From the IMG/VR virus record IMGVR_UViG_3300021379_000072, positions 1 through 22,080 of that record: a stretch of DNA of 22,080 nt, one strand, 5' to 3'. Origin of the DNA: a virus. Numbering within the stretch: the first letter of the stretch is position 1; every line of letters starts with the position of its first letter. Below are positions 1-16,090 of the stretch, piece after piece. The position numbers were made by a program, and so were the translations under genes. Under the pieces are notes generated by a model that was not told where the DNA came from, did not search any database, and saw only the letters and a list, made by a program, of their open reading frames with translations.

Positions 1-784
1 CAAGTTCGTTTTGAATGTTAGGGATGTCCTGTTGCCAATCAACAAATTTAGGATTCTCAGTATTGAAGTGAAGATCGTTCAACCAGTTACGAGTTTCAAA
101 AACATGTTCCCAATCAATATTTTTCTTGTATTCCTTGATTGCATCTAAGTTTTTAATTTGAACAAAAGTCATACCATGAGATGGTTTATAATGTTCGATC
201 TTGATATTGTCGTCTTCATACTCAGTCCTGTCACGGATGCTTTCAGAAAGTCCAAAGAAATCAGTGATGGCGACATCAGGACGCTTCACCTTCACTCCTC
301 CAATCGTATCTCCATAAGTGTATTCATCAATAACATTATCTTCACCACTATGAGCGATTGAGTGTGTATCGTGGAATACAAGGTATCCACCCTCTTTTAG
401 ATTTTCAATCCAGAAATACATCTCAGCAAGAACCTGTTCACGGGTATGAATGGTATCAATAAAAACAATGTCAAAAGGATCCTCATCCCAGTTCTTACCA
501 AGAGTTACACTATCTGCCATATAGCACATGTAGTTTGGTTGAACAAAACGAGCACCGGTTCGTTCAAAACCTTCAAACTTCAAATCACAACCACATACTT
601 GATTGTTGTTATCATCAGCATTAATAGACATGATTGCAGATGATGCACCAAGGCGAACTCCAAGATCCATAAATCTTGCATTCTTGTATGTCTTTACCAA
701 GTCTGCAAAAATCCAGGCATTCACGCCAAGATCATTGTAAGGTTCGTTGAGAAAGTTTCTAATTTCAGTGAGATTAGTAGCCAT
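1..784 (-). CDS. Class I SAM-dependent methyltransferase (partial, 3' end outside window)
   Basis: The reading frame gives 261 complete codons from the ATG at 782-784 and stays open to the window edge, so the C-terminus is missing. Residues 38-50 form the SAM-binding motif I (FMDLGVRLGASSA). Residues 104-114 (FDIVFIDTIHT) and 131-142 (EGGYLVFHDTHS) match the later strands of the Methyltransf_24 type, in which an acidic residue and a His-Asp pair lie near the active site. The likely reaction is methyl transfer from SAM to a small molecule or sugar. The start overlaps the stop of the upstream epimerase gene by 11 bp, so the two are co-translated. That context suggests a nucleotide-sugar or glycan acceptor, which is inference. 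A cephalosporin-hydroxylase-like or other SAM-fold enzyme cannot be excluded. Confidence 0.8.
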   Translation of the reverse strand, partial: MATNLTEIRNFLNEPYNDLGVNAWIFADLVKTYKNARFMDLGVRLGASSAIMSINADDNNNQVCGCDLKFEGFERTGARFVQPNYMCYMADSVTLGKNWDEDPFDIVFIDTIHTREQVLAEMYFWIENLKEGGYLVFHDTHSIAHSGEDNVIDEYTYGDTIGGVKVKRPDVAITDFFGLSESIRDRTEYEDDNIKIEHYKPSHGMTFVQIKNLDAIKEYKKNIDWEHVFETRNWLNDLHFNTENPKFVDWQQDIPNIQNEL

Positions 785-1628
785 AGTTCTTTTTCATATC
801 ATTGAATACTTGTCTAATACCGTCTTGGATATTAGTTTTAGGGATCCACCAGTCAAGAATGAAGGTGTCGGCGGCGTTCCTTTTATCCATCTGAACGCTA
901 TCTTTTGCAAGTCCAGAATTTATTTTAACATCCATGATCCCTTCCAGTTGGAAGCAACCTTGAATGATGTTAGCAACCTCTCTAATCGTGTCAGAGCGGA
1001 ATGAGGTGATGTGAAGAGGATCTTCAGGTTTGAAGTCGGTGTAATTATCCATCACCGTCTCCAGCGCCTCACAGCAGTCCTCTGCGTAGAGGAACTGACG
1101 CTCTTCAGTGCCATCAGTCAACATATCAAATTCCTTCTCTTCAAATCCTTTACGGATGAAGTCAGTGATGACATGTGCTTTATCCATGTCTTTCTCAATG
1201 CCATAGACATTCCAGAACTTAACAGTCAGTCCTTTCAGAGTGCTGGTGTAAAGTTCACCGACACGTTTTAGCACACCATAGGGAGAGTGACTCATGTTAC
1301 TCATCTGAGATGATGCAAAGACAAAACGCTTCTTGTACTTGCCAAGCAAGTCAAAAACGTTTGCCATCATACGAGTGTTGTTATTAACAAAGTTAAACGT
1401 ATGTTGATACTTCTTCAGGTATCTAGAACCACCCACATCAAAAGCAAGAACAAACACAAAGTCTGAATTCTTGATAGCACGATCAAGATTATGATTCGGA
1501 ATTTGAGTCATATCTTCACCATGATGGCGAGCGATATCAAATGGCGTGACATCATGTCCCTTAGCAGAAAGGTACTCAACAAGGTAAGCACCAATCTGTC
1601 CGCTTGATCCCAATACTGTAACTTTCAT
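774..1628 (-). CDS. NAD-dependent epimerase/dehydratase (extended SDR)
   Basis: A 284-aa extended short-chain dehydrogenase/reductase. Residues 6-14 (LGSSGQIGA) form the Gly-rich NAD(P)-binding turn, with GSSG in place of the usual TGxxG. The catalytic YxxxK is Y117/K121 (SPYGVLK), and a Ser pair at 106-107 fits the third catalytic position. A conserved NVYG lies near residue 140. Proteins of this family epimerise, reduce or dehydrate nucleotide-activated sugars in the cytoplasm. The exact substrate cannot be read from the sequence. Its ATG overlaps the stop of the GDP-mannose 3,5-epimerase gene by 4 bp (ATGA), so it probably acts on the product of that enzyme or on a sugar in the same pathway, which is inference. 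The length is slightly short for an epimerase (about 310-340 aa) but no domain is obviously missing. Confidence 0.85.
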   Translation of the reverse strand: MKVTVLGSSGQIGAYLVEYLSAKGHDVTPFDIARHHGEDMTQIPNHNLDRAIKNSDFVFVLAFDVGGSRYLKKYQHTFNFVNNNTRMMANVFDLLGKYKKRFVFASSQMSNMSHSPYGVLKRVGELYTSTLKGLTVKFWNVYGIEKDMDKAHVITDFIRKGFEEKEFDMLTDGTEERQFLYAEDCCEALETVMDNYTDFKPEDPLHITSFRSDTIREVANIIQGCFQLEGIMDVKINSGLAKDSVQMDKRNAADTFILDWWIPKTNIQDGIRQVFNDMKKNYGY

Positions 1629-2674
1629 CGTGCCGATACCTGCTTAGCAATCCAAGTATACGTCAATCTGATTCCTTCTTCAAGTGTCTGAGAATAATCC
1701 CATCCAAGTTTTTCACGAATGAGATCATTGTTAGAATTACGTCCACGAACACCAAGAGGTGCATCTAGTTTGTGGCGCTTCTGCACTACCTTACCAGAAA
1801 CTTTAGCAGTAGTCTCTACCAGTTGATTGATGGTAACCATCTCTTCAGAACCAATATTGACGGGGCCAATAAAGTCACTATCCATCAACCTTCTAGTTGC
1901 TTCAATGCATTCATCAATGAACAGGAAGGAACGAGTCTGTAAGCCATCTCCCCACACCTCGATGGATCCACCGAGCGCCGCAAGTTCTGCGACTTTACGG
2001 CAGATTGCAGCTGGTGCTTTCTCTCTTCCACCTTCCCAGGTTCCCTCGGGGCCAAAGATGTTGTGGTAGCGAGCAACCCTAACAGGAATGCCGTGATTAC
2101 GATTGTAAGCGAAGTAGAGACGCTCACTGAAAAGTTTCTCCCATCCATATTCAGAATCCGGGTTAGCAGGATATGCAGACTCCTCACGACAATCTGGGTT
2201 GTCGGGATCAAGTTGATTGTGCTCTGGATACATGCAAGCAGAACCAGAGTAGAAGATCTTAGTTTTGTTTACTTCAGTTCTTTCATTCAACTGACGTTGC
2301 TCTTCAAGAACGTTCAGATTGATAGATACAGAATTGTGCATGATGTCTGCATCGTTCTCGCCAGTGAAAACGAAACCTGCACCACCCATATCAGCAGCGA
2401 ACTGATAGATCTCATCAAAAGATTCAATCAGTCTTTCAGGAACGCTGTTGTAAAAGTTTCCACGATATCCTTTAAATTCAAGGACTCGTTTGACAAAAGA
2501 AACATCCCTCAAATCACCAAGAACAAACTCATTTGCTCTAGTGGAGGAAAATTCTGGTTGCTTAAGATCGACTCCACGAACCCAATACCCTTCTTCGCGG
2601 AGTCGTTTTACCATATGACTTCCAATAAAGCCACCTGCACCGAGAACCAGTGCAGTCTTTGTGTATTCAGACAT
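1625..2674 (-). CDS. GDP-mannose 3,5-epimerase-like SDR enzyme
   Basis: A 349-aa extended SDR. The NAD-binding motif GAGGFIG is at residues 12-18. The catalytic YxxxK is Y176/K180 in a YGWEK context. Segments typical of GDP-mannose 3,5-epimerase are AADMGG near 93-98, GSACMYP at 144-150 with C147, a HNIFGP loop at 204-209, GREKAPAA at 216-223 with K219, and GDGLQTRSF at 242-250 with R248. In plant GME the corresponding Cys and Lys are the acid/base pair for C3/C5 epimerisation, and the Arg binds the diphosphate. The plant enzyme converts GDP-D-mannose to GDP-L-galactose and GDP-L-gulose. All key residues are present, so the protein should be active. It is the first gene of a sugar-modifying block that continues with an SDR and a methyltransferase. 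A sister epimerase with another GDP-sugar substrate remains possible. Confidence 0.88.
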   Translation of the reverse strand: MSEYTKTALVLGAGGFIGSHMVKRLREEGYWVRGVDLKQPEFSSTRANEFVLGDLRDVSFVKRVLEFKGYRGNFYNSVPERLIESFDEIYQFAADMGGAGFVFTGENDADIMHNSVSINLNVLEEQRQLNERTEVNKTKIFYSGSACMYPEHNQLDPDNPDCREESAYPANPDSEYGWEKLFSERLYFAYNRNHGIPVRVARYHNIFGPEGTWEGGREKAPAAICRKVAELAALGGSIEVWGDGLQTRSFLFIDECIEATRRLMDSDFIGPVNIGSEEMVTINQLVETTAKVSGKVVQKRHKLDAPLGVRGRNSNNDLIREKLGWDYSQTLEEGIRLTYTWIAKQVSAR

Positions 2675-2702
2675 GATAAGTGAATTTTACTTTAGTATTA
2701 TA

Positions 2703-2912
2703 TCAGATGCCAAGTTTATATGCGATCTTCTCTGCAAGTTCTTCAACTCGCTTTTCTAATGCAGCAATTCTATCTGCATCTGCGCCCCCGCCACCACCAC
2801 ACTTATCGTGTGCTTTTGCCTCAAGTGCTTGAAGTCTTCCTTCAACTTCAACATCATACTTAGACATTGCTGCACCAGATGCAGACTTTGCTGCTGTTCC
2901 TTTTGTTGCCAT
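2703..2912 (-). CDS. Small Ala-rich coiled-coil protein, unknown function
   Basis: A 69-aa protein read from the ATG at 2910-2912. The frame extends upstream only to a TTG, which I rejected. The N-terminus is rich in Ala, Ser and Lys and probably disordered. A run of five Gly after a single Cys (KCGGGGG) separates two short heptad-like helices, the second reading as ALEKRVEELAEKI. This composition suggests a small oligomeric or virion-associated protein, but I recognise no named family. An octamer TCTAAATA at 2937-2944 lies 24 bp upstream and could be a late promoter. The next gene downstream is the GDP-mannose 3,5-epimerase, 28 bp away. Confidence 0.6.
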   Translation of the reverse strand: MATKGTAAKSASGAAMSKYDVEVEGRLQALEAKAHDKCGGGGGADADRIAALEKRVEELAEKIAYKLGI

Positions 2913-2935
2913 AGTAATCAAACAATTCTATGTGA

Positions 2936-3169
2936 CTATTTAGATACAACGTCCCTGACATAACAGGGAACACCTTCGGGATCCAGCCACTTGGTGTATT
3001 CAAAGTCGTCCATTGCAGTGAGAAGTTGCATCTGATTGTCCAACAAATACATGTCGCTGTATCGCTTAGTGTAGTGATGTGCTTTTTGAATGCGATAGTC
3101 AGGATATCCGTTCTCTAGGACACCAGACTCAACGTAACGATAGGGGAAGCGTTCGAGAAGAACTTTCAT
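2936..3169 (-). CDS. Hypothetical 77-aa protein
   Basis: A complete small ORF from an ATG that overlaps the stop of the upstream gene by 4 bp (ATGA), which supports translation. The protein is rich in aromatic residues, especially Tyr, and in charged residues, with no membrane segment and no Cys pair. I recognise no family. The overlap and common strand place it in the run of small accessory genes between the tRNAs and the sugar block. Confidence 0.55.
   Translation of the reverse strand: MKVLLERFPYRYVESGVLENGYPDYRIQKAHHYTKRYSDMYLLDNQMQLLTAMDDFEYTKWLDPEGVPCYVRDVVSK
2937..2944 (-). promoter_or_regulatory. Possible late-promoter octamer TCTAAATA
   Basis: It shares TAAATA with the late consensus, is 24 nt before the ATG at 2912, and overlaps the stop of the upstream gene. 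It could drive the coiled-coil gene and the sugar block. Confidence 0.3.
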
Positions 3170-3381
3170 TGGACTTCGATAGTTTCAAGATCATTATACA
3201 CGTATTCCATCAGGATGTCATAGTCATCCATAGGATCGCCAGAAAAAACCACACCGCTGTTCTCATAAAACTTACGAACTTTCTTGAAAAGTTTTGGGTT
3301 CTTTACATCGAGAAAGAATTCTCCATTTGCTGCACTTCGGAGAGTCTGTACGTCCTTCTTGAATTTGCTAGTCAGTGTCAT
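3166..3381 (-). CDS. Hypothetical 71-aa protein
   Basis: The ATG at 3379-3381 is preferred. The longer frame needs a TTG at 3432 that abuts the 3' end of a tRNA gene. The N-terminal half is basic (SKFKKDVQTL, KNPKLFKKVRKFY), and the C-terminal half is acidic and aromatic (DPMDDYDILMEYVYND). No known domain is recognised. It is coupled by a 4-bp overlap to the 77-aa gene downstream. The 51 bp between it and the tRNA hold no other feature I can identify. Confidence 0.55.
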   Translation of the reverse strand: MTLTSKFKKDVQTLRSAANGEFFLDVKNPKLFKKVRKFYENSGVVFSGDPMDDYDILMEYVYNDLETIEVQ

Positions 3382-3432
3382 TGTCTTGTGTGTTGACGAG
3401 TCAAGTATAACTGACTTATGTATCCTTGTCAA

Positions 3433-3505
3433 TAGGGGTTGCGAGGATCGAACTCGCCTTAGGCAAATTATGAGTTTGCTGCATTCACCAGATTGCTAAA
3501 CCCCT
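3433..3505 (-). tRNA. tRNA with CAU anticodon (elongator Met, or Ile2)
   Basis: A cloverleaf can be drawn: acceptor AGGGGTT with AACCCCT and discriminator A, D arm GCA/TGC with GG in the loop, anticodon stem GCAAA/TTTGC with loop CTCATAA (anticodon CAT), and T arm GCGAG/CTCGC with TTCGATC. The 3' CCA is not encoded, since the next bases read TTG. The fully paired first acceptor pair and the A/T-containing anticodon stem argue against an initiator. A lysidine-modified Ile2 cannot be excluded from sequence, but the neighbouring Ile-UAU tRNA makes Met more likely. Its first base directly follows the CCA of that tRNA. Confidence 0.88.
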
Positions 3506-3580
3506 TGGTAGGACTGCTGAGAATTGAACTCAGTTCACACCGTTATAAGCAGTGGGCCTTAACCAATAGGCGACAGTCCC
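3506..3580 (-). tRNA. tRNA-Ile (anticodon UAU), CCA encoded
   Basis: Acceptor GGGACTG pairs with CAGTCCT (first pair G-U), followed by discriminator A and an encoded CCA at 3506-3508. The D arm is GCC/GGC with GG in the loop. The anticodon stem CACTG/CGGTG holds loop CTTATAA, giving anticodon TAT, which reads AUA. The T arm is CTGAG/CTCAG with TTCAATT. Ile-UAU is uncommon in bacteria, which usually read AUA with lysidine-modified CAU. The 5' end overlaps the last codons of the Phd/YefM-like gene by 22 bp. Confidence 0.88.
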
Positions 3581-3711
3581 TCAAAGTCCTCTGCAGGTAT
3601 CATAACTGCAGTATTTTTTCCATTAGTGATTGCAATATGCTCACCATTTTCTACACGGGTGATCATTTCATCCCAGCGTTCTTGAAATTCTTCAACCGTG
3701 TAAGTTTCCAT
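3559..3711 (-). CDS. Phd/YefM-like antitoxin-family protein (orphan), C-terminus inside tRNA-Ile
   Basis: A 50-aa protein from the ATG at 3709-3711 to a TAA at 3559-3561. The pattern METYTVEEF, then a charged helix, then RVENGEHIAIT, AVMIP and EDFEGL follows the N-terminal DNA-binding half of the Phd/YefM antitoxin fold: a beta-strand, two helices, a V-x-x-G-E turn, and a strand ending in a hydrophobic-Pro pair. The toxin-binding C-terminal helix is absent. The last seven residues and the stop are encoded by the 5' end of the tRNA-Ile gene, which suggests the end was formed by a tRNA insertion or recombination. The start overlaps the previous stop (TAATG). No RelE, Doc or similar toxin is visible nearby. 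It may act as a repressor or neutralise a host toxin, both of which are inference. Confidence 0.75.
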   Translation of the reverse strand: METYTVEEFQERWDEMITRVENGEHIAITNGKNTAVMIPAEDFEGLSPIG

Positions 3712-3890
3712 TACTTACCTACCAAGGCAAACAAACCATGCGAATAGAATCCTAAAACAATAGATCCTAAGATCGCACTTATTATTGTAGCAGTTTTGTT
3801 GTGTTTGTCAATTGCTTTGTCAATCATTTCCTGGCACTGTTTTTCAGTAACGTAGTGCTCAGGTTTGATTTCATCCATCCTGTGTGACAT
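3711..3890 (-). CDS. Small single-span membrane protein (59 aa)
   Basis: An ORF from the ATG at 3888-3890. A second in-frame ATG at 3876-3878 would give 55 aa and a tighter 8-bp overlap with the upstream gene. The first 33 residues are polar and charged. Residues 35-57 form one hydrophobic segment (IISAILGSIVLGFYSHGLFALV) suitable for a transmembrane helix, followed by a terminal GK. The stop and the start of the Phd-like gene share one base (TAATG), so the two are probably translationally coupled. The function is unknown. The protein might be an inner-membrane accessory factor. Confidence 0.65.
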   Translation of the reverse strand: MSHRMDEIKPEHYVTEKQCQEMIDKAIDKHNKTATIISAILGSIVLGFYSHGLFALVGK

Positions 3891-4026
3891 TGGGCAGGTT
3901 ACTCATAGGATCCGGTAACCCACTTACTATAGCACAAGCTCGCTTATAAAAGTAGTTGTCTGTTGTTCCGTTTTCCTCAAATTTCTCTTTAATGATTTGC
4001 CAGTTGGCAAGTTCGTCGGGATGCAT
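3871..4026 (-). CDS. Hypothetical 51-aa protein
   Basis: A short ORF from the ATG at 4024-4026 to a TGA at 3871-3873, overlapping the next gene. It reads MHPDELANWQ, then a charged helix, then NYFYKRACAIVSGLPDPM, an arrangement I associate with small conserved proteins of marine T4-like phages. There is no membrane segment and no catalytic motif. The gene overlap on the same strand and the regular amino-acid composition support coding. The function is unknown. Confidence 0.6.
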   Translation of the reverse strand: MHPDELANWQIIKEKFEENGTTDNYFYKRACAIVSGLPDPMSNLPNVTQDG

Positions 4027-4056
4027 TTACTTAAAATGGTAACAGCATGATACTAG

Positions 4057-4272
4057 TTAGACATTTAAGTATCTCTTAAGAGTTATGATACTAACACAAT
4101 TGGAGGAATTATCATTCCAGTGCCTCACGGCATTTGCAACGATGGCAACATTAGTAACCATGTAAGACACAAGAATAAAGGTGCGTATGCAAGCAATAAT
4201 ATCTGCTTCTCTATCATCTCGTCCATCTTTACGTCCTAATGCTTTTGCCCAGATACGCCAAAGCCTCTTCAT
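4057..4272 (-). CDS. Small membrane protein with basic N-terminus (71 aa)
   Basis: The ATG at 4270-4272 overlaps the upstream stop by 4 bp (ATGA). The N-terminus is basic and aromatic (MKRLWRIWAKALGRKDGRDD). A hydrophobic helix follows at about residues 28-49, ending in IVANAVRHW. A positively charged cytoplasmic face and one transmembrane helix are predicted. The pattern resembles small membrane proteins repeatedly found in cyanophages, of unknown role. The 30 bp between its stop and the next gene show no promoter or terminator that I can identify. Confidence 0.65.
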   Translation of the reverse strand: MKRLWRIWAKALGRKDGRDDREADIIACIRTFILVSYMVTNVAIVANAVRHWNDNSSNCVSIITLKRYLNV

Positions 4273-4517
4273 CTAACATCGAAATCTAACTTACGAACTT
4301 TTCTCTTTCTTCTCTGCTCTTGATATGCAAGATCTTGATTAGAAAGAACTTTATCTGATAACTTTTTCTTATCAGAATTAATCATAACAACCTTACTAAG
4401 ATCCTGTGCAGAAACTTTGTCGCCACGCACAGACATCATGTTAGGGCAACCACAGACTTGAGTTTTATTATTACTACAAAGTTCTGTGTTGCATTCTTTG
4501 CATCTGACGGTAATCAT
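4269..4517 (-). CDS. Small zinc-ribbon-like protein (82 aa)
   Basis: The ATG at 4515-4517 is preceded by a strong ribosome binding site AGGAGG at 4528-4533, 10 nt away. The N-terminus carries a CxxC pair (CKEC) at 6-9, a Cys at 14 and a CGC at 22-24, a four-Cys layout that could bind zinc. The remaining part is Lys/Asp/Arg rich and ends in a basic stretch (QEQRRKRKVRK). A nucleic-acid-binding role is plausible but is inference. It is the first gene transcribed after tRNA-Val and is coupled to the membrane-protein gene that follows. Confidence 0.65.
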   Translation of the reverse strand: MITVRCKECNTELCSNNKTQVCGCPNMMSVRGDKVSAQDLSKVVMINSDKKKLSDKVLSNQDLAYQEQRRKRKVRKLDFDVR

Positions 4518-4540
4518 TTTTCATAGTCCTCCTATGGGAA

Positions 4541-4612
4541 TGCAAGATGACGGGATCGAACCGCCGGCCAATTCGGTGTAAACGAATTGCTCTACCGCTG
4601 AGCTAATCTTGC
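4541..4612 (-). tRNA. tRNA-Val (anticodon UAC)
   Basis: Acceptor GCAAGAT/ATCTTGC with discriminator A. D arm GCTC/GAGC, anticodon stem ATTCG/CGAAT with loop TTTACAC (anticodon TAC), and T arm GGCGG/CCGTC with TTCGATC. The CCA is not encoded. Its first base follows directly after the encoded CCA of tRNA-Asn. Confidence 0.92.
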
Positions 4613-4688
4613 TGGCTCCTCCACCTGGACTCGAACCAGGGACAGGGTGATTAACAGTCACCTGCTCTACCAACTGAGCTATAGAGGA
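4613..4688 (-). tRNA. tRNA-Asn (anticodon GUU), CCA encoded
   Basis: Acceptor TCCTCTA/TGGAGGA (with one G-U pair) and discriminator G, then CCA at 4613-4615. D arm GCTC/GAGC, anticodon stem GGTGA/TCACC with loop CTGTTAA (anticodon GTT), and T arm CCTGG/CCAGG with TTCGAGT. It abuts tRNA-Val with no spacer. Confidence 0.93.
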
Positions 4689-4814
4689 AGGGGAATATCC
4701 CCTGCTCGTCAGCAGGGGAGGCTCAAGAGGGATCCCACCTCTCTCTCACATGGGTTGTTGTTCCGATTCTTTTTTTTCTCGGAGATGTGAGCACGGATGT
4801 ATTCCAGTCCGTTA
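4689..4814 (-). other. Structured spacer between tRNA-Gly and tRNA-Asn
   Basis: 126 bp without a convincing gene. On the transcribed strand, an outer 7-bp stem (4785-4791 with 4745-4751, CTCACAT/ATGTGAG) encloses a 5-bp stem (4779-4783 with 4762-4766, TCCGA/TCGGA) that caps an A-rich loop. A second, perfect 8-bp hairpin, CCCCTGCT/AGCAGGGG with a 4-nt loop, lies at 4699-4718 just before tRNA-Asn. Neither hairpin is followed by a T run, so they are not standard terminators. They may be processing signals or a small RNA, which is inference. Confidence 0.4.
4699..4718 (-). other. Perfect 8-bp GC-rich hairpin
   Basis: The inverted repeat CCCCTGCT/AGCAGGGG has a 4-nt loop and lies 11 bp upstream of the 5' end of tRNA-Asn. 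With no U tract after it, it is more likely an RNA-stability or processing element than an intrinsic terminator. Confidence 0.5.
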
Positions 4815-4886
4815 AGCGGGATATCGGACTCGAACCGACGACATTCAGCTTGGAAGGCTGACGTTCTACCACTGAACTAATCCCGC
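4815..4886 (-). tRNA. tRNA-Gly (anticodon UCC)
   Basis: Acceptor GCGGGAT/ATCCCGC with discriminator T, which is usual for tRNA-Gly. D arm GTTC/GAAC, anticodon stem TCAGC/GCTGA with loop CTTCCAA (anticodon TCC), and T arm GTCGG/CCGAT with TTCGAGT. The CCA is not encoded. Confidence 0.93.
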
Positions 4887-4890
4887 GAGG

Positions 4891-4963
4891 CAGGTACGGT
4901 AGGACTCGAACCTACAATCTACCGCTTAGAAGGCGGGGGCATTATCCATTATGCTACGTACCC
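4891..4963 (-). tRNA. tRNA-Arg (anticodon UCU)
   Basis: Acceptor GGGTACG/CGTACCT (first pair G-U) and discriminator G. D arm GCAT/ATGC, anticodon stem CCCGC/GCGGT with loop CTTCTAA (anticodon TCT), and T arm GTAGG/CCTAC with TTCGAGT. The bases after the discriminator read CCT, so CCA is not encoded. It reads AGA, a codon favoured by A+T-rich phages. It lies 11 bp after the acidic protein gene and 4 bp before tRNA-Gly. Confidence 0.93.
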
Positions 4964-4974
4964 AGAAAGAAGAC

Positions 4975-5184
4975 TCAGATCTCTGATTCAGAGTTTTGAG
5001 TTGTGTCTTCGAGTACAATATAGTCCATTCCATCCATTTTGTCAAGATCGAACCACTCGTACCATTCATCCATCATTGCAAGTCTGTCATAGATTTGATC
5101 AACTGATTCAGTTGCTCCCATCTTTTCGATTCTGGTGATTGCCCAATCACGGGCTTGCATCACCACATCCGTTTCCATTTCCAT
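4975..5184 (-). CDS. Small acidic protein (69 aa), unknown function
   Basis: I place the start at the ATG at 5182-5184. Upstream codons of this frame shadow the GIY-YIG gene, and later ATGs at 5176-5178 and 5158-5160 are possible. The core reads ARDWAITRIEKMG, a helix, DEWYEWFDLDKMDGMDYIVLED and a polar tail, giving a strongly acidic, aromatic C-terminal half. I recognise no family. It overlaps the end of the nuclease gene by up to 38 bp in another frame. Acidic phage proteins of this size often bind host enzymes or mimic DNA, but nothing here proves that. Confidence 0.6.
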   Translation of the reverse strand: MEMETDVVMQARDWAITRIEKMGATESVDQIYDRLAMMDEWYEWFDLDKMDGMDYIVLEDTTQNSESEI

Positions 5185-5611
5185 AGTAGTCTTTTCGGAA
5201 GTATCTGCTGAGGATGTTACTATTGTAGTATTTGGGTTCTCCTGTGTCAAGGGATTCTGTAAGGACTCCGTTGATGAAGAGTTGTCTGGTTTCTTCAAAA
5301 TTAGTTTTGCCCTTCGTCTTATGAACACTGATAATAGTTCTGCTAAAATTTTGTTTGCCGAATTTGATAATGTCTTCCTTAAGCTCTGGACAAGAACCAT
5401 AATACTTTTTCCAATCGGATTCTGATTTTACTTTTCGTTTTTTACCTCTAGGAGTTCTGAACTGCCAGAAGTATTTTCTACCGATGTATTGGCGATTATT
5501 TTTGAGATTTGTAATGAGGTAGACAAAACCGTACAGATCGTCAATATCCTCAGATACAAAAGGTGATCCTTTAAAATACCATGGATTTTCATAATCACAT
5601 TCGATACTCAT
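5147..5611 (-). CDS. Free-standing GIY-YIG family endonuclease
   Basis: A 154-aa protein. The GIY-equivalent is in LYGFVYLI (26-33) and the YIG motif in QYIGRK (41-46), where the Arg after YIG is the expected catalytic residue. WKKYYGS lies at 67-73. A Glu pair at 106-107 (NFEETRQ) supplies the metal ligand, and YYN at 128-130 closes the domain. This is the catalytic domain of phage homing-type nucleases. No separate DNA-binding domain follows, and the tail (NGNGCGDASP) simply runs out of frame over the next gene. The gene lies close after nrdB, a locus that carries homing elements in T4. A late-promoter octamer is 26 bp upstream. A mismatch-repair or restriction-like role is an alternative. 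Confidence 0.85.
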   Translation of the reverse strand: MSIECDYENPWYFKGSPFVSEDIDDLYGFVYLITNLKNNRQYIGRKYFWQFRTPRGKKRKVKSESDWKKYYGSCPELKEDIIKFGKQNFSRTIISVHKTKGKTNFEETRQLFINGVLTESLDTGEPKYYNSNILSRYFRKDYYGNGNGCGDASP

Positions 5612-5792: not shown

Positions 5793-6983
5793 TCAGAGTT
5801 GAAAACCACTGAATGTGTCCTTTTTCACATCTTGCTTGATACCACCAACCACATAGGACTCTACTTCAGTCTCCTGAGGGGCAACCTGAAGTCCCTTAGA
5901 GGAGATCCAATGCTGCGTCCAGGGCAGAGGGTTAGCAGATGCGGGAATATCATACTGTGGTTTCAGTCCGATTGCTTTCAGACGACGATTAGCAATCCAC
6001 TCAACATATTGCTGAAGAAGTTTGTCATTAAGTCCGATCATTGAACCATCCTTGAACAGATAGTCTGCCCACTTCTTCTCTTCGTTGACAGCACGATCAA
6101 ACATCTTATAAGTCCACTCTTCTTCTTCCTTCATGATCTGCTTCATTTCAGGATCATCACCTGCTCTCCACTTGTTCAGAATATTCTGAGTAATTGCTAG
6201 GTGTTGGTTTTCGTCTCTTGCGATAAGAGAGATGACTTTAGCTGATCCTTCCATAAGCTTAAGTTCACCAAAGGCGAAACTACAAGCAAAACTAACGTAG
6301 AACCGAATACCTTCAAGAATGTTAACGTTTGCGACTGCTCTGTAGAGTCTACGCTTGACATCTTTGATCTCCCATTGTGCGGTAGGTGAATCTCTGAAAT
6401 CTTTCTCCCACATATGTCCGTTGCCCCAGGTTTGAGCACCGTTGATGAAATCATCATATGCTTCTGTAACGCTGCTAGCACGCTCCAGAATACGCTTGTC
6501 GGTGACGATCTTATCGAATACCTCTGAGGGATCCGCATAGACGTTCTTGATGATGTAGGTGTAGGAACGACTATGAATCATTTCCATGAATCCCCACACT
6601 TCCATACATGCTTCCAACTCAGGAAGAGAGCAGTAAGGAATGAATGCCATTCCAGGCCCTCTACCCTGAATTGAGTCAAGCATGATCTGATACTTCAGAT
6701 TAGAAGTGTAGATATGCTTCTGCTCCGGACGAAGAGTTTGATAGTCCCCACGATCTTTCTGTAGAGACACCTCTTCGGGACGCCAAAAATATCCAAGTTG
6801 TTGGGTAGTCAGTTTATCAAAAACTGGATACTTATAGGAATCGTACCTCTGGACTCCCAGAGGTTTTCCAAAAAACATTGGTTGCTTTTTGGTATCTACT
6901 TGTTCTGTGTTAAAGACAGTCATTCCTTTGACTTCTGTCTTTTTGTCGTCCACGGATGAAACCTTAAACTGCACAGGATTCAC
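5793..6983 (-). CDS. nrdB: Class Ia ribonucleoside-diphosphate reductase beta subunit
   Basis: The 396-aa radical-generating subunit partners NrdA to reduce ribonucleoside diphosphates for phage DNA synthesis. The diiron ligands align with those of E. coli NrdB: D103 (LDSIQGR), E134 and H137 (MEMIHSRS), E224 (NILEGIRFY), and E258 and H261 (ARDENQH). The radical Tyr is Y141 (HSRSYTY), so the enzyme should be functional. The C-terminal tail (DTFSGFQL) fits the NrdA-docking peptide. The start is a GTG at 6981-6983, supported by a GAGGAGG ribosome binding site 6 nt upstream. An internal ATG at residue 21 (MTVFNTEQ) is the alternative. The gene overlaps the end of nrdA by 20 bp. Confidence 0.97.
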   Translation of the reverse strand: MNPVQFKVSSVDDKKTEVKGMTVFNTEQVDTKKQPMFFGKPLGVQRYDSYKYPVFDKLTTQQLGYFWRPEEVSLQKDRGDYQTLRPEQKHIYTSNLKYQIMLDSIQGRGPGMAFIPYCSLPELEACMEVWGFMEMIHSRSYTYIIKNVYADPSEVFDKIVTDKRILERASSVTEAYDDFINGAQTWGNGHMWEKDFRDSPTAQWEIKDVKRRLYRAVANVNILEGIRFYVSFACSFAFGELKLMEGSAKVISLIARDENQHLAITQNILNKWRAGDDPEMKQIMKEEEEWTYKMFDRAVNEEKKWADYLFKDGSMIGLNDKLLQQYVEWIANRRLKAIGLKPQYDIPASANPLPWTQHWISSKGLQVAPQETEVESYVVGGIKQDVKKDTFSGFQL

Positions 6984-9261
6984 ACTCTCCCTCCTCGGCT
7001 TGTTCTAATTCTTGCAAGATACTATTCAGTTTTTCTTTGTCGTCCTCTACTTCGTCAGACTTTAAATCATTTGTATTCTGGTAGTAAGAGGTTTTCCAAC
7101 CGTACTTATATGTAGTCAAAAAGTCTTGTGCCATGATGGACACTGGGACTTCATTGTCAGGATAATTTTCTGGGTTGTAACTCCAGTTACCAGAAATTGC
7201 TTGATCAAAGAACTTTTGCATCACAGCAACAACATTAATATAACCCCTATTGTCAGGCATATCCCACAAAAGGGTGTAATTATTTTTAAGAGTCGCGTAA
7301 GACGGGACGATCTGTTTAAGCGGGCCCTTCTTGCTCTTCTTAACGGACAAATAGTCTCTAGGTGGCTCGATTCCATTTGTTGCGTTTGACACAACGGAAC
7401 TGCTCTCTGATGGCATCTGAGCAGACAATGTTGAGTGCCGTAAACCGTGGGTGGAGATAGACTCTCTAAGACTTTCCCAATCATGTGCTAATTCTTGACT
7501 AGAAATTTCATCAACATCTTTCTTGTAAGTATCGATAGGAAGAATACCGTCTGCATACTTAGTGCGTCCAAAGTATTCACAGTGTCCCTTTTCCTTAGCA
7601 AGTTGATTAGACGCCTTCAGAAGGTAATACTGGAAGGACTCAGCAAGTCCATGGACTGCATCCCATGCTTCTTGATCACCATAATTATATCCAAGTTTTG
7701 CCAAATAATGTGCCAAACCAATGAATCCAATACCAAGCGATCTACGCGCCCTTGTAGCGATTTCTGCTGCCTTTACAGGGTACTTCTGATAGTCAATCAG
7801 TTCTTCCAGTCCACGAACAGAAAGATCACAAAGATTCTCAAGTTCTTCATCAGACTTGACTTTACCAACATTGATGGCAGACAGAATACAAAGTGCAATC
7901 TCACCATACTCATCATCAATATGATTCAGAGGATAGGTTGGAAGAGTGATTTCTTGGCAGAGATTAGACATCTCAACCTTATCTTTAAAGGAAGAATGGG
8001 AGTTACAGTGATCAATGTTCATGATATAGAGGCGTCCAGTCTCTGCACGCTCCTTCAGAAGATCAAGGATCAGTTTCTGTGCCCCGATAGTCTTTCTTGA
8101 AATAAACTCATTTCGTTCAAAACTAACATATAGATCATCGAACCTATCAGTACCAAAAGCGTCATATAAACCTGGTACGTCATGCGGTGAGAAGAGGCTA
8201 ATCTCTCCATCAGCGATGAAACGTTCGTAGAAAAGTTTTGAAATCTGGATGGAGTAGTCAAGTTTCCTTACGCGATTGTCCTCTGTACCTTTGTTGTTCT
8301 TCAGGACAATGATGTCTTCGATTTCTTGGTGCCAGATTGGGAAGTGGACAGTCGCTGATCCACCTCTAATGCCATTTTGTGTGCAGCATCTGACAGTTGC
8401 CTCAAACTTTTTGAGAAATGGGACAACGCCTGTGTGTTGAACTTCTCCACCTCGGATTTTACTGTTGATGCCACGGATTCTGCCTGCGTTGATACCGATT
8501 CCCGCCCTTTGTGCAACGTACCGGCCAATTGCCATATCAGAAGTAAAGATAGAATCGAGGGTGTCATCAACATCAACAAGCACACAGCTAGCAAATTGTC
8601 GAAGTGGAGTTCGCACTCCTGCCATGATAGGTGTGGGAATGTTGATTTTGTGCTTTGAGATTGCGTCATAATACCTCTTGACGTAAGACATCCTTGTGTC
8701 TTTGGGATACTCTGCAAAAATAGTCAGAGCAATCATCATATACATGAACTGAGGAGTTTCATACACTCCACCAGTGCTACGATCCTGAACCAAATACTTA
8801 TCTGCTACCTGGCGCAGTCCAGCATAGGTAAAAAGAAAATCACGGGTATGATCAATGTAAGAATTTGCTCTCGCAATTTCTTCCTTAGAATATTTAATGA
8901 AAATATCTTTGTCATACACTTCTTTTGCAGTGCAATCCATAATATGTGCCTCAAGATGAGGAAGTTCTCTCATCTTCCCATAGAGACTCTTACGAAGACT
9001 AAACAAAAGCAGACGTGCTGCCACGAACTGATAGTTAGGATGATCCAAATCAATCAGATCAGAAGCAGAACGAATCAAAATTTCCTGAATTTCTGCTGTG
9101 GTGATGCCATCATAAAACTGAATACCAGAAGTCATCTCAACTTGACTAGCTGACACACCTGCAAGTCCTTTGGTTGCTTCATCAACCATCAGATGCATTT
9201 TATCCAAATCAAGAGACTCAATTCTACCGTCTCGCTTTTTAACCTTAATACCGTTGCTCAT
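6964..9261 (-). CDS. nrdA: Class Ia ribonucleoside-diphosphate reductase alpha subunit
   Basis: A 765-aa catalytic subunit. Residues 1-95 form an ATP-cone allosteric domain. The active-site residues match E. coli NrdA: C226 (FASCVLV), N433/C435/E437 (SNLCQEI) with thiyl radical C435, and C458 (IALCILS). The radical-transfer pair is Y726/Y727 (KTSYYQNT). The C-terminal pair C760/C763 (CESC) exchanges with the reductant; it has a CxxC spacing rather than the CxxxxC of E. coli. The ATG overlaps the primase stop by 4 bp, and nrdB follows with a 20-bp overlap. Cyanophages use this enzyme to turn host nucleotides into dNTPs. It is complete, and no intron or intein interrupts it. Confidence 0.98.
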   Translation of the reverse strand: MSNGIKVKKRDGRIESLDLDKMHLMVDEATKGLAGVSASQVEMTSGIQFYDGITTAEIQEILIRSASDLIDLDHPNYQFVAARLLLFSLRKSLYGKMRELPHLEAHIMDCTAKEVYDKDIFIKYSKEEIARANSYIDHTRDFLFTYAGLRQVADKYLVQDRSTGGVYETPQFMYMMIALTIFAEYPKDTRMSYVKRYYDAISKHKINIPTPIMAGVRTPLRQFASCVLVDVDDTLDSIFTSDMAIGRYVAQRAGIGINAGRIRGINSKIRGGEVQHTGVVPFLKKFEATVRCCTQNGIRGGSATVHFPIWHQEIEDIIVLKNNKGTEDNRVRKLDYSIQISKLFYERFIADGEISLFSPHDVPGLYDAFGTDRFDDLYVSFERNEFISRKTIGAQKLILDLLKERAETGRLYIMNIDHCNSHSSFKDKVEMSNLCQEITLPTYPLNHIDDEYGEIALCILSAINVGKVKSDEELENLCDLSVRGLEELIDYQKYPVKAAEIATRARRSLGIGFIGLAHYLAKLGYNYGDQEAWDAVHGLAESFQYYLLKASNQLAKEKGHCEYFGRTKYADGILPIDTYKKDVDEISSQELAHDWESLRESISTHGLRHSTLSAQMPSESSSVVSNATNGIEPPRDYLSVKKSKKGPLKQIVPSYATLKNNYTLLWDMPDNRGYINVVAVMQKFFDQAISGNWSYNPENYPDNEVPVSIMAQDFLTTYKYGWKTSYYQNTNDLKSDEVEDDKEKLNSILQELEQAEEGECESCAV
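6990..6996 (-). promoter_or_regulatory. Ribosome binding site GAGGAGG of nrdB
   Basis: It lies 6 nt before the GTG at 6981-6983 and inside the nrdA reading frame, which favours GTG over the internal ATG as the nrdB start. Confidence 0.6.
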
Positions 9262-14863: not shown

Positions 14864-16090
14864 CTACTTTTTAGCTTTGTACTTATTTATGAAATTCTTA
14901 ATAGTGGTAGTACCAGTTGCTGCCATCGCATTCTTAAGATATCCACCAGTGCCATCGAGAGTGTTTGGTTTACCAGGAACTCTCATACGACGTTCCATTG
15001 TTTTCTCAGTATATTCCATAACATCACGAATCCAAGACTTAAACATTACGTTCTCTTGGGTGACACAAATGAGATGATTGGTTCCTCTACGGACAATCTC
15101 ACCAATCAATCCAGTGTTGAGATTCTCAACAATATCGCCCATTTTATAAATGAGTCCATTTACATATTGCTCACGAAGTCCCCTTGTATCAAACTTTGGA
15201 GCAATCTCCCACATTTCCGCAGTAACTGCCTTTTTCTTAACATTCATACCAGTGCGGACTGCATCATAAAGTGCTTGGGCATCGGCGTCCTTTACACTAG
15301 AGGGAACACCTCTCTTGAATGCTTCAAAGTCATCATCAACAACTGCCTTTCTCATCTTAGATGCAGACATTCCTTCTACACCTTCAGCATCTGCATCTCT
15401 AACACCTGCAGACACAACACGAATGTTATCAAAGTTGTATAACTCACCATTATATTTGGTGGCAAGACTTTCAAATTCAGACTGACGATCTGAACCAACA
15501 ATGATAGTTACATTTTTGTACTCACCATCAGCAGTTTGTAATACATTAAAGATGGATCTCATCTCATCATCATTAACGATGTTCTCATCAAAGTCTGGGA
15601 ACATCTTCTTCATGAAAGAGACTTTCATATCAGGATCAAGAGGATTTTTCTTAGGATCCTGAGTTCTTGATGGATAGATTTTTAAGTCACCACCAGCGGC
15701 AGTCTTTCTTGCCATTTGAAGTAGTTTCTCATGTCCAACAGTTGGGGGGTTGAATCTACCAAATGCAAGTGTGAGAGTGTCCGTGCTTACTTCCTTTTCC
15801 CCATCACCCTCTTCTTTACCACCTTTTTTCTTCTGAGGTGCCTTGTCCACAGACATTGTTTTTGTCTTGAGAACAGGAGTTGTCTTCTTTGTATTAGGAG
15901 TTTGATCTGGATCCTTACCAGGTTTCTGATTCTTATTGAAAAATTTTAACTTACCGTCTTCTGTCTTCGCAACAAACTCTCCGGCACGGTTTAACCAACC
16001 ACCGTGTCCGTCACCTTTCAAACCAAGTTTTCTTGCCTGTGTTGCAGCTTGTGACTCTGCCTCACCTAGGAACTTAAAGAAACTTTTCAT
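14864..16090 (-). CDS. Nucleotidyltransferase-domain protein with phage-specific ends (408 aa)
   Basis: Three parts are visible. Residues 1-52 are a short module (ATQARKLGLKGDGHGGW, then EFVAKTEDGKLKFF) of a kind I associate with cyanophage proteins. Residues 53-100 are a Lys/Pro-rich linker. Residues 104-260 form a cytidylyltransferase-like fold: FGRFNPPTVGH at 110-120 with a TxGH signature, VGSDR at 198-202, and MSASKMR at 241-247 in place of the ISSTxxR motif. This fold, as in NMN or pantetheine-phosphate adenylyltransferases, transfers a nucleotide to a small substrate. The C-terminus (GLREQYVNGLIYKMGDIVEN onward) is another unidentified module. The substrate is unknown. The gene lies inside the late block between two apparently structural genes. 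Confidence 0.82.
   Translation of the reverse strand: MKSFFKFLGEAESQAATQARKLGLKGDGHGGWLNRAGEFVAKTEDGKLKFFNKNQKPGKDPDQTPNTKKTTPVLKTKTMSVDKAPQKKKGGKEEGDGEKEVSTDTLTLAFGRFNPPTVGHEKLLQMARKTAAGGDLKIYPSRTQDPKKNPLDPDMKVSFMKKMFPDFDENIVNDDEMRSIFNVLQTADGEYKNVTIIVGSDRQSEFESLATKYNGELYNFDNIRVVSAGVRDADAEGVEGMSASKMRKAVVDDDFEAFKRGVPSSVKDADAQALYDAVRTGMNVKKKAVTAEMWEIAPKFDTRGLREQYVNGLIYKMGDIVENLNTGLIGEIVRRGTNHLICVTQENVMFKSWIRDVMEYTEKTMERRMRVPGKPNTLDGTGGYLKNAMAATGTTTIKNFINKYKAKK
14884..14891 (-). promoter_or_regulatory. Late-promoter-like octamer CATAAATA
   Basis: It matches the T4 late consensus in 7 of 8 bases and lies 29 nt before the ATG at 14854, at the end of the preceding gene. Confidence 0.5.

What the first reader, a model, noticed from the sequence alone, without database searches (positions are those of the whole stretch)
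1625..2674. Phage-encoded GDP-mannose 3,5-epimerase
The protein carries the complete fingerprint of plant GME: C147, K219 and R248, plus the GREKAPAA and GDGLQTRSF strings and the YGWEK motif. This is a specialised enzyme of GDP-L-galactose/GDP-L-gulose formation, rarely discussed in phages. A phage version could rebuild surface sugars on infected cells or decorate the virion.
Basis: partly seen in the sequence, partly recalled or inferred. Interest (0 to 1): 0.72.

Follow-up and report, generated by a model that had tools for sequence, protein, structure and literature searches.

The report
Cyanophage GDP-mannose 3,5-epimerase in sugar cassette
A virus of marine cyanobacteria carries a well-preserved gene for the enzyme that plants use to turn GDP-mannose into GDP-L-galactose; it is a real but already reported kind of phage gene, and its surroundings point to a less understood two-enzyme route to an unusual sugar.

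Summary
Window 1625-2674, MINUS strand, encodes a 349-aa GDP-mannose 3,5-epimerase (GME). Plant GMEs are its best solved relatives by sequence (1e-84; next family 2e-21) and fold (Z 35-36 against 32.9). The window is a 22-kb fragment of a T4-like cyanophage.

It is not a first: cyanophage S-SCSM1 has a published GME, and 38 of 146 matching phage records are at 60% identity or more, mostly named otherwise. It is a new member of a known kind.

Around it: (1) the next gene overlaps it by 4 bases and encodes a GME-like enzyme ("SDR2") without the catalytic cysteine. It shares a contig with GME in 67 of 80 viral contigs, but follows GMD and GDP-fucose synthase in P-SSM2, so I infer that it modifies an L-galacto GDP-sugar. 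(2) In 38 of 80 viral GME loci the orphan candidate riboswitch wcaG lies directly before GME; the window lacks it. (3) GME is rare in the host family. Activity, product and role are untested.

The parts
1625..2674 (-). GDP-mannose 3,5-epimerase (GME), 349 aa; C147, K219, S145, Y176, K180, N205, R248, R312
774..1628 (-). SDR2, 284-aa GME-like SDR without the catalytic cysteine (ASSQM in place of SSAC); its start overlaps the GME stop (4 bases)
2..784 (-). Methyltransf_24 protein, cut by the window edge; overlaps SDR2 by 11 bases, so probably the same operon
2684..2713 (-). sigma-70-like promoter match directly before GME (TTGGCA-18-TAAAAT); no more than a consensus match
   Evidence: 8 sites found in 2000-5000 against 5.9 expected, so weak
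2703..2921 (-). small ORF just before GME; at this place many relatives have a wcaG RNA, for which no match was found in the window
3433..4963 (-). six tRNA genes (Met, Ile, Val, Asn, Gly, Arg), with small ORFs, between nrdB and the sugar cassette; similar order of modules in phage S-SM2
5793..9261 (-). nrdB (5793-6983) and nrdA (6964-9261): T4-like phage context
18614..22078 (-). DnaB-type helicase, UvsX/RecA-like recombinase and a DNA-polymerase-like ORF: T4-like replication block

Best explanation
A T4-like cyanophage encodes a working GDP-mannose 3,5-epimerase. It oxidises GDP-D-mannose at C4 (Y176/K180 and bound NAD), inverts C5 and C3 with C147/K219 as acid/base, and reduces C4 again, giving mainly GDP-L-galactose (some GDP-L-gulose). 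The gene starts an operon-like sugar cassette. SDR2 then further modifies the L-galacto GDP-sugar, and phage glycosyltransferases (GT10/GT11 'fucosyltransferase' families in relatives) put the L-sugar on the infected cell's surface polysaccharide. Shown: homology, active-site residues, purifying selection, gene order. Inferred: activity, product, SDR2's place in the pathway, surface glycan as target.
For: Best PDB match is plant GME. The model (pLDDT 87.7) matches plant GMEs at Z 35.1-36.2, 43-44% identity, above all other rows shown. The GME site residues are present and invariant in 84 viral and 81 bacterial rows. dN/dS 0.03-0.10. In a contig with a 98%-identical GME the cassette goes on with two GT11s, GT17, GT2, GT25 and two UDP-glucose/GDP-mannose dehydrogenase-family genes; in S-SM2 the next gene is a GT10. 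Fucosyltransferases are known to accept GDP-L-Gal (PMC8787198). In two Prochlorococcus genomes GME and SDR2 lie together; in the one that I looked at further, the next gene is mannose-1-phosphate guanylyltransferase/mannose-6-phosphate isomerase. In ten GME-bearing records, three of them complete phages, no match to GMD or GDP-fucose synthase passes the family cut-off.
Against: I found no activity data for a phage GME in the papers searched. Blocks of residues 141-180, with C147 and Y176, are modelled with mean pLDDT of only 62-71. GDP-fucose could come from the host (GMD over cut-off in 194 of 300 genomes of the host family), so the GT10/GT11 genes need not use GDP-L-Gal. S-SCSM1 and 7 of 80 SDR2 loci carry GMD, GDP-fucose synthase and GME together. 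The window's own cassette is cut at its edge, so its glycosyltransferases are inferred from a relative.
Confidence: 0.85

Rival explanations
1. It is another GDP- or NDP-sugar SDR: a GDP-fucose synthase (GFS), a UDP-glucose 4-epimerase (as many cyanophage records call it) or a dTDP-glucose dehydratase.
For: Weak matches to GFS (93 bits), GalE (67) and RmlB (64) models; many homologues in phage records carry such names.
Against: All three scores are far below the curated cut-offs (500, 262, 365). GalE lacks the Cys/Lys pair and GFS uses His, not Lys (PMC8787198); here C147 and K219 are present. Plant GME scores 288 bits.
Confidence: 0.05
2. It is a GME by descent, but the product that matters is GDP-L-gulose or GDP-D-altrose, or the substrate is a relative of GDP-mannose.
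For: GMEs make GDP-L-gulose and GDP-D-altrose as by-products (PMC8787198). The phage protein is only 43-44% identical to plant GME over the aligned part and has an insert before residue 85 relative to it.
Against: The residues named for the reaction on GDP-mannose are kept; the characterised bacterial GME of Methylacidiphilum, about 50% identical to plant GMEs, does the same reaction (PMC6678494, sections read).
Confidence: 0.1
3. The sugar goes to the virion (for example tail or capsid glycosylation) rather than to the host surface.
For: I did not search for it.
Against: The cassette of a close relative holds families common in surface-polysaccharide synthesis, and in a Prochlorococcus contig the same pair lies beside GMP/PMI and sugar genes. 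Neither excludes virion use.
Confidence: 0.12

Closest known systems
Plant GDP-mannose 3,5-epimerase (Arabidopsis 2C54/2C59, Myrciaria 8SG0/8SKB)
   Same: Fold, catalytic residues, GREKAPAA, GDGLQTRSF, RGRNS
   Different: 43-44% identity over the aligned part; YGWEK instead of YGLEK, GAGGFIG instead of GAGGFIA; virus gene in a polysaccharide cassette, not vitamin C synthesis
GME of Synechococcus phage S-SCSM1 (ORF123, PMC9602691)
   Same: Same family, T4-like cyanophage, inside a cell-wall sugar cassette; named GME in print
   Different: 65% identical; there it follows GMD and GFS. A long branch in the tree
Bacterial GME (first characterised: Methylacidiphilum fumariolicum, PMC6678494)
   Same: Same site residues; the 80 loci fetched from bacterial and archaeal genomes are 61-78% identical to the window (the top three are the phage-like contig L085 and two Prochlorococcus)
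   Different: 26 of 30 phage rows, with one genome of the host family, form a starred set of their own
qui gene for GDP-L-quinovose from GDP-L-fucose (De Castro 2013, known here only as cited in PMC5322557, passages read)
   Same: Like SDR2 in P-SSM2 it goes with gmd and fcl
   Different: Not compared: the Qui sequence was not at hand, so any kinship with SDR2 is a lead only

Membership tests
GDP-mannose 3,5-epimerase | Closest solved relatives are GMEs | tested here: met
   1e-84 against 2e-21 for the best non-GME; Z 35.1-36.2 against 32.9
GDP-mannose 3,5-epimerase | Ser/Tyr/Lys triad and NAD-binding glycine motif | tested here: met
   S145, Y176, K180, GAGGFIG; S145, Y176, K180 and the three glycines tested invariant in 165 of 165 rows
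GDP-mannose 3,5-epimerase | Catalytic Cys/Lys pair (Arabidopsis C145/K217) | tested here: met
   C147/K219 by the alignment; invariant in 165 of 165 rows (loci were partly chosen by motifs, one of which includes this Cys)
GDP-mannose 3,5-epimerase | Cys-acidifying Arg (R306), diphosphate Arg (R243), Asn (N203) | tested here: met
   R312, R248, N205; roles from PMC8787198
[quoted passage not shown]
   needs an assay
GDP-L-fucose synthase (GMER) | Over the curated score of NF047922; catalytic His instead of Lys | tested here: not met
   93 bits against 500 (note that two phage GFSs score 455 and 462, also under it); Lys at 219
UDP-glucose 4-epimerase (GalE) | Over the curated score of TIGR01179; no Cys/Lys pair | tested here: not met
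   67 bits against 262; pair present
GME, for SDR2 (774-1628) | Catalytic Cys | tested here: not met
   ASSQM, invariant in 29 of 29 rows; SDR2 is related to GME by profile (hhalign E 1.8e-17) but is not a GME by this test

The most novel reading that the evidence does not exclude
GME and SDR2 form a two-step phage pathway to a rare GDP-L-sugar. Because SDR2 follows either GME (GDP-L-galactose) or GMD plus GFS (GDP-L-fucose), it may be a 4-epimerase of L-galacto GDP-sugars, giving GDP-L-glucose in the first case and GDP-L-quinovose in the second. In many relatives the candidate riboswitch wcaG would govern entry into this GDP-mannose branch by sensing one of its GDP-sugars.
Probability: 0.12. 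Interest if true: 0.82.

Novelty: new member of a known kind. Interest (0 to 1): 0.42.

Why it matters
The gene shows that marine cyanophages carry the committed step to GDP-L-galactose, a gene found in only 2 of 300 sampled genomes of the host family (one of the two being the genome chosen as centre because it has GME; completeness of the genomes not told). If the enzyme is active, infection would add a sugar that most hosts may not make, which bears on superinfection, grazing and dissolved polysaccharide. Many database names for these proteins are wrong or vague, so the pathway is hidden. The neighbours give two testable questions: what SDR2 makes, and whether the orphan wcaG RNA senses a GDP-sugar of this branch.

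Tried and rejected
Rejected: GFS, GalE and RmlB as identities for the window protein. Rejected: a recent transfer from plants; the protein nests among bacterial and marine GMEs with the single plant row on a long branch. Not established: that phages took the gene from cyanobacteria or the reverse; four of 30 phage rows fall outside the main phage set and the bootstrap had not settled. Not found: a wcaG RNA in the window; Rfam at E up to 1 and my own model at E up to 0.01 gave none. SDR2's fold does not tell its reaction: the 50 entries shown are ordinary NDP-sugar SDRs within Z 22.8-24.3; the Foldseek top hit happens to hold GDP-L-fucose (8rdh), but that is no evidence by itself. The bacterial sample for SDR2 (398 genomes of one phylum) gave only the starting genome and one distant match, without a GME, GMD or GFS match in the 16 kb taken around it. 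Literature: 'GDP-mannose epimerase'+phage+virus found nothing; 'GDP-mannose 3'+epimerase+cyanophage, cyanophage+nucleotide-sugar epimerase+lipopolysaccharide, GDP-L-galactose+cyanobacteria+phage and wcaG+riboswitch+GDP-mannose each found only PMC9602691. In its passages on wcaG RNA I saw no link to GME; I did not read the whole paper or its supplements. GDP-L-quinovose+Pyrococcus-type leads gave nothing on SDR2. Subscription journals are mostly not held.

Full report
OBSERVATION. The window is a 22,080-base virus record. Its recognised genes lie on the minus strand and include nrdA, nrdB, a DnaB-type helicase, a RecA/UvsX-like recombinase, a DNA-polymerase-like ORF and six tRNAs. UvsX is 94% identical to that of Synechococcus phage S-SM2, so this is a T4-like cyanophage. 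The ORF at 1625-2674 is on the minus strand, 349 aa.

IDENTITY. Among 177,635 distinct PDB sequences the best matches are plant GMEs: five GME sequences at 1e-84 to 3e-81 (276-288 bits), then a GalE at 2e-21 (80 bits). By the same alignment (chain number = native number + 2) the phage residues correspond to Arabidopsis S143, C145, Y174, K178, N203, K217, R243 and R306 as S145, C147, Y176, K180, N205, K219, R248 and R312. Their roles are in PMC8787198 (section 5 read). All eight are invariant in 84 viral and 81 bacterial rows; these loci were found partly by peptide patterns, one of which includes the cysteine, so that count is somewhat circular. NCBIfam models of GFS, GalE and RmlB score far below their cut-offs. 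The AlphaFold model (52 sequences, pLDDT 87.7, pTM 0.89) matches GMEs first (Z 35.1-36.2, rmsd 2.2-2.9, 307-316 aligned, 43-44% identity), then GalE at Z 32.9; the blocks of residues 141-180, with C147 and Y176, have mean pLDDT of only 62-71. NG86 dN/dS against four relatives is 0.030-0.102: strong purifying selection.

KNOWN IN PHAGES. Of 146 phage records with a match, 38 are at 60% identity or more; 37 of them are in the listing that I saw. Of these 37, one is named GME (S-SCSM1, one of its two records), five have no annotation, and 20 are called 'UDP-glucose 4-epimerase' or 'nucleotide-sugar epimerase'; some records are GenBank/RefSeq doubles. For scale, 447 records have a UvsX at 60% or more. 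S-SCSM1 ORF123 is named GME in its record and in print, with GMD and GFS before it (PMC9602691, passages read). So the finding is a new member of a known kind.

DESCENT. I built a tree of 63 GMEs: 30 phage rows (window, 20 of the 80 viral contigs, two further contigs, seven phage records), four rows from Prochlorococcus-family genomes and the phage-like contig L085, 28 other rows of the 80 loci, and one plant. The window lies in a starred set of 27 rows: 26 phage rows and one genome of the host family. A wider starred set of 41 rows adds two Prochlorococcus, a Pelagibacteraceae, Patescibacteria and a few others. Phage rows are not one clade (S-SCSM1, S-PRM1, P-TIM68 and S-SSM7 fall outside the 27), and the bootstrap had not settled. 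The plant row is far off. In the GTDB family of a Prochlorococcus genome that has GME, 2 of 300 genomes have a close GME (E up to 1e-60, at most six candidates scored per genome), one of them being that centre itself; GMD is over its cut-off in 194 of 300; SDR2 is in 1 of 300, again the centre. Hosts thus commonly make the GDP-fucose intermediate but rarely have GME.

SDR2. The next gene (774-1628) overlaps the GME by four bases. Its product is a 284-aa SDR whose closest PDB sequences are again GMEs, but weakly (1e-8); the profiles align nearly end to end (hhalign 98.9%, E 1.8e-17, 25% identity). It keeps the GG motif after the Rossmann core, Tyr117/Lys121, a Lys (150) aligned with GME's catalytic Lys and an Arg (177) aligned with R248, but has ASSQM where GME has SSAC; these are invariant in 29 of 29 rows. 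It therefore fails the GME test. dN/dS is 0.10-0.14 in three pairs. In GME loci it is present in 33 of 80 viral and 4 of 80 from cellular genomes: two Prochlorococcus, the phage-like contig L085, and one Patescibacterium, where it lies on the other strand. Many loci are cut, so these are lower bounds. Searched the other way, 51 of 80 SDR2-bearing viral loci hold a GME, always before SDR2 on the same strand, within 50 bases in 28. Of the 29 without, 16 have GME elsewhere on the contig: 67 of 80 in all. The remaining 13 are contigs of 5-29 kb without one. Among phage records with SDR2 at 59% or more (17), 12 also appear with GME at 60% or more. The other five are P-SSM2 (three records), P-SSM5 and AG-345-E02. 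In P-SSM2 the two genes before SDR2 are GMD (539 bits, cut-off 415) and a GFS (462 bits, just under its cut-off of 500); AG-345-E02 has the same order by tblastn and P-SSM5 is annotated with GMD and an epimerase there; the two other P-SSM2 records were not opened. SDR2 thus stands after either route to an L-galacto GDP-sugar, GDP-L-Gal or GDP-L-Fuc. That is why I infer that it acts on such a sugar. Which reaction is open; a gene called qui is presumed to turn GDP-L-fucose into GDP-L-quinovose (cited in PMC5322557, passages read), and a 4-epimerase would fit. Against: 7 of 80 SDR2 loci have GMD, GFS and GME all together, two more GMD and GME, and I could not compare SDR2 with Qui.

CASSETTE. 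In a contig whose GME is 98% identical, the cassette continues past the window's edge with a GalE-like SDR (138 bits, under its cut-off of 262), GT17, GT2, GT25, two GT11s, two UDP-glucose/GDP-mannose dehydrogenase-family genes, methyltransferase, radical SAM and NAD synthase. S-SM2 has a GT10 right after GME; S-SCSM2R is annotated with GT10 and GT11. Fucosyltransferases can use GDP-L-Gal (PMC8787198, section 12 read). In ten GME-bearing records, three of them complete phages and seven fragments, no match to GMD or GFS passes its cut-off: 3 of 10 have sub-threshold GMD-model matches of 42-64 bits, and the best GFS-model score, 94 bits, lies on the GME itself, against 455 and 462 for two phage GFSs. 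The host may still supply GDP-fucose. In one Prochlorococcus contig, GME and SDR2 are followed by mannose-1-phosphate guanylyltransferase/mannose-6-phosphate isomerase (683 bits) and lie among glycosyltransferase- and SDR-like genes near what I read by eye as chromosomal housekeeping genes.

wcaG RNA. Rfam's wcaG (RF01761), a riboswitch candidate whose ligand I saw nowhere named (PMC2864571, passages read), lies before the cassette in S-SM2 and S-SCSM2R; in that first look 4 of 10 GME stretches had it. A model built from five copies, two of them from these loci (L007, L012), hits 56 of 80 viral GME loci at E up to 0.01, each time upstream on the same strand. In 38 of them its 3' end is 47-154 bases before the GME start, 34 of these at 67-82; 30 of the 38 score 42 bits or more, eight are weaker. 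Rfam's own model reaches its gathering score at this place in 16 of the 17 of these 38 loci that I gave it. Against: the copy annotated in S-SCSM1, one of my five, does not reach Rfam's gathering score, and none is found in the stretches of S-SSM7, P-TIM68, S-PRM1, P-SSM2, AG-345-E02 or two host genomes, nor in 24 of 80 viral loci. GME starts within 200 bases of the core in 24, GMD in 16; one of GME/GMD/GFS is further downstream in 38; none is seen in 42 (12 of these with under 1.2 kb of sequence). GME, GMD, GFS and SDR2 lie upstream in 0 of 120 (60 with 4 kb or more upstream). So wcaG often precedes the committed enzyme that takes GDP-mannose towards GDP-L-Gal or GDP-L-Fuc, but by no means always. 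In the window and its four nearest relatives (L002-L005) none was found.

VERDICT. A genuine, conserved cyanophage GME; activity very likely, role inferred. Ordinary as a kind, more interesting for its partner SDR2 and for the wcaG link in relatives.

Noticed in passing
L002-L081 upstream of GME; L264-L382 and L081: The orphan candidate riboswitch wcaG (RF01761) lies directly before GME in 38 of 80 viral GME loci, and within 200 bases of GME or GMD in 40 of 120 wcaG loci found by pattern.
   Followed up: partly
window 774-1628 (SDR2); L177 8073-10843 (P-SSM2): SDR2 goes with GME in most phages that have it but with GMD+GFS in P-SSM2: interchangeable upstream modules suggest a substrate with L-galacto configuration.
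   Followed up: partly
L085 / L171 (record titled Rhodobacteraceae MAG): The contig carries GME, SDR2 and, by clustering and by eye, GT11 and NAD-synthase genes like cyanophage cassettes, and its GME pairs with that of phage S-SSM7 in the tree; the same MAG has another GME (60%) elsewhere. It looks like a phage contig binned into a bacterial MAG. L088/L089, titled Bifidobacterium breve, have GMEs near the marine cluster, so their labels may be doubtful too.
   Followed up: partly
phage records H1-H37: Of 37 cyanophage GME records listed at 60% identity or more, 20 are annotated as UDP-glucose 4-epimerase or nucleotide-sugar epimerase and one as GME.
   Followed up: yes
window 2675-2935, minus strand: The stretch before GME (a small ORF) folds more stably than its shuffles (z -3.4, 0 of 200 as low); it is probably coding and no Rfam match was found there.
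   Followed up: no
window 5147-5611: SegE-like GIY-YIG endonuclease gene (PF19835, 1.5e-54) beside nrdB and the tRNAs.
   Followed up: no
window 14864-16090: 408-aa protein with cytidyltransferase PHROG matches (phrog_395, 5.8e-98).
   Followed up: no
L176 3113-3308 (phage P-TIM68): A manA RNA (RF01745, 177 bits) lies about 2.7 kb before the GME of P-TIM68, with other genes between.
   Followed up: no
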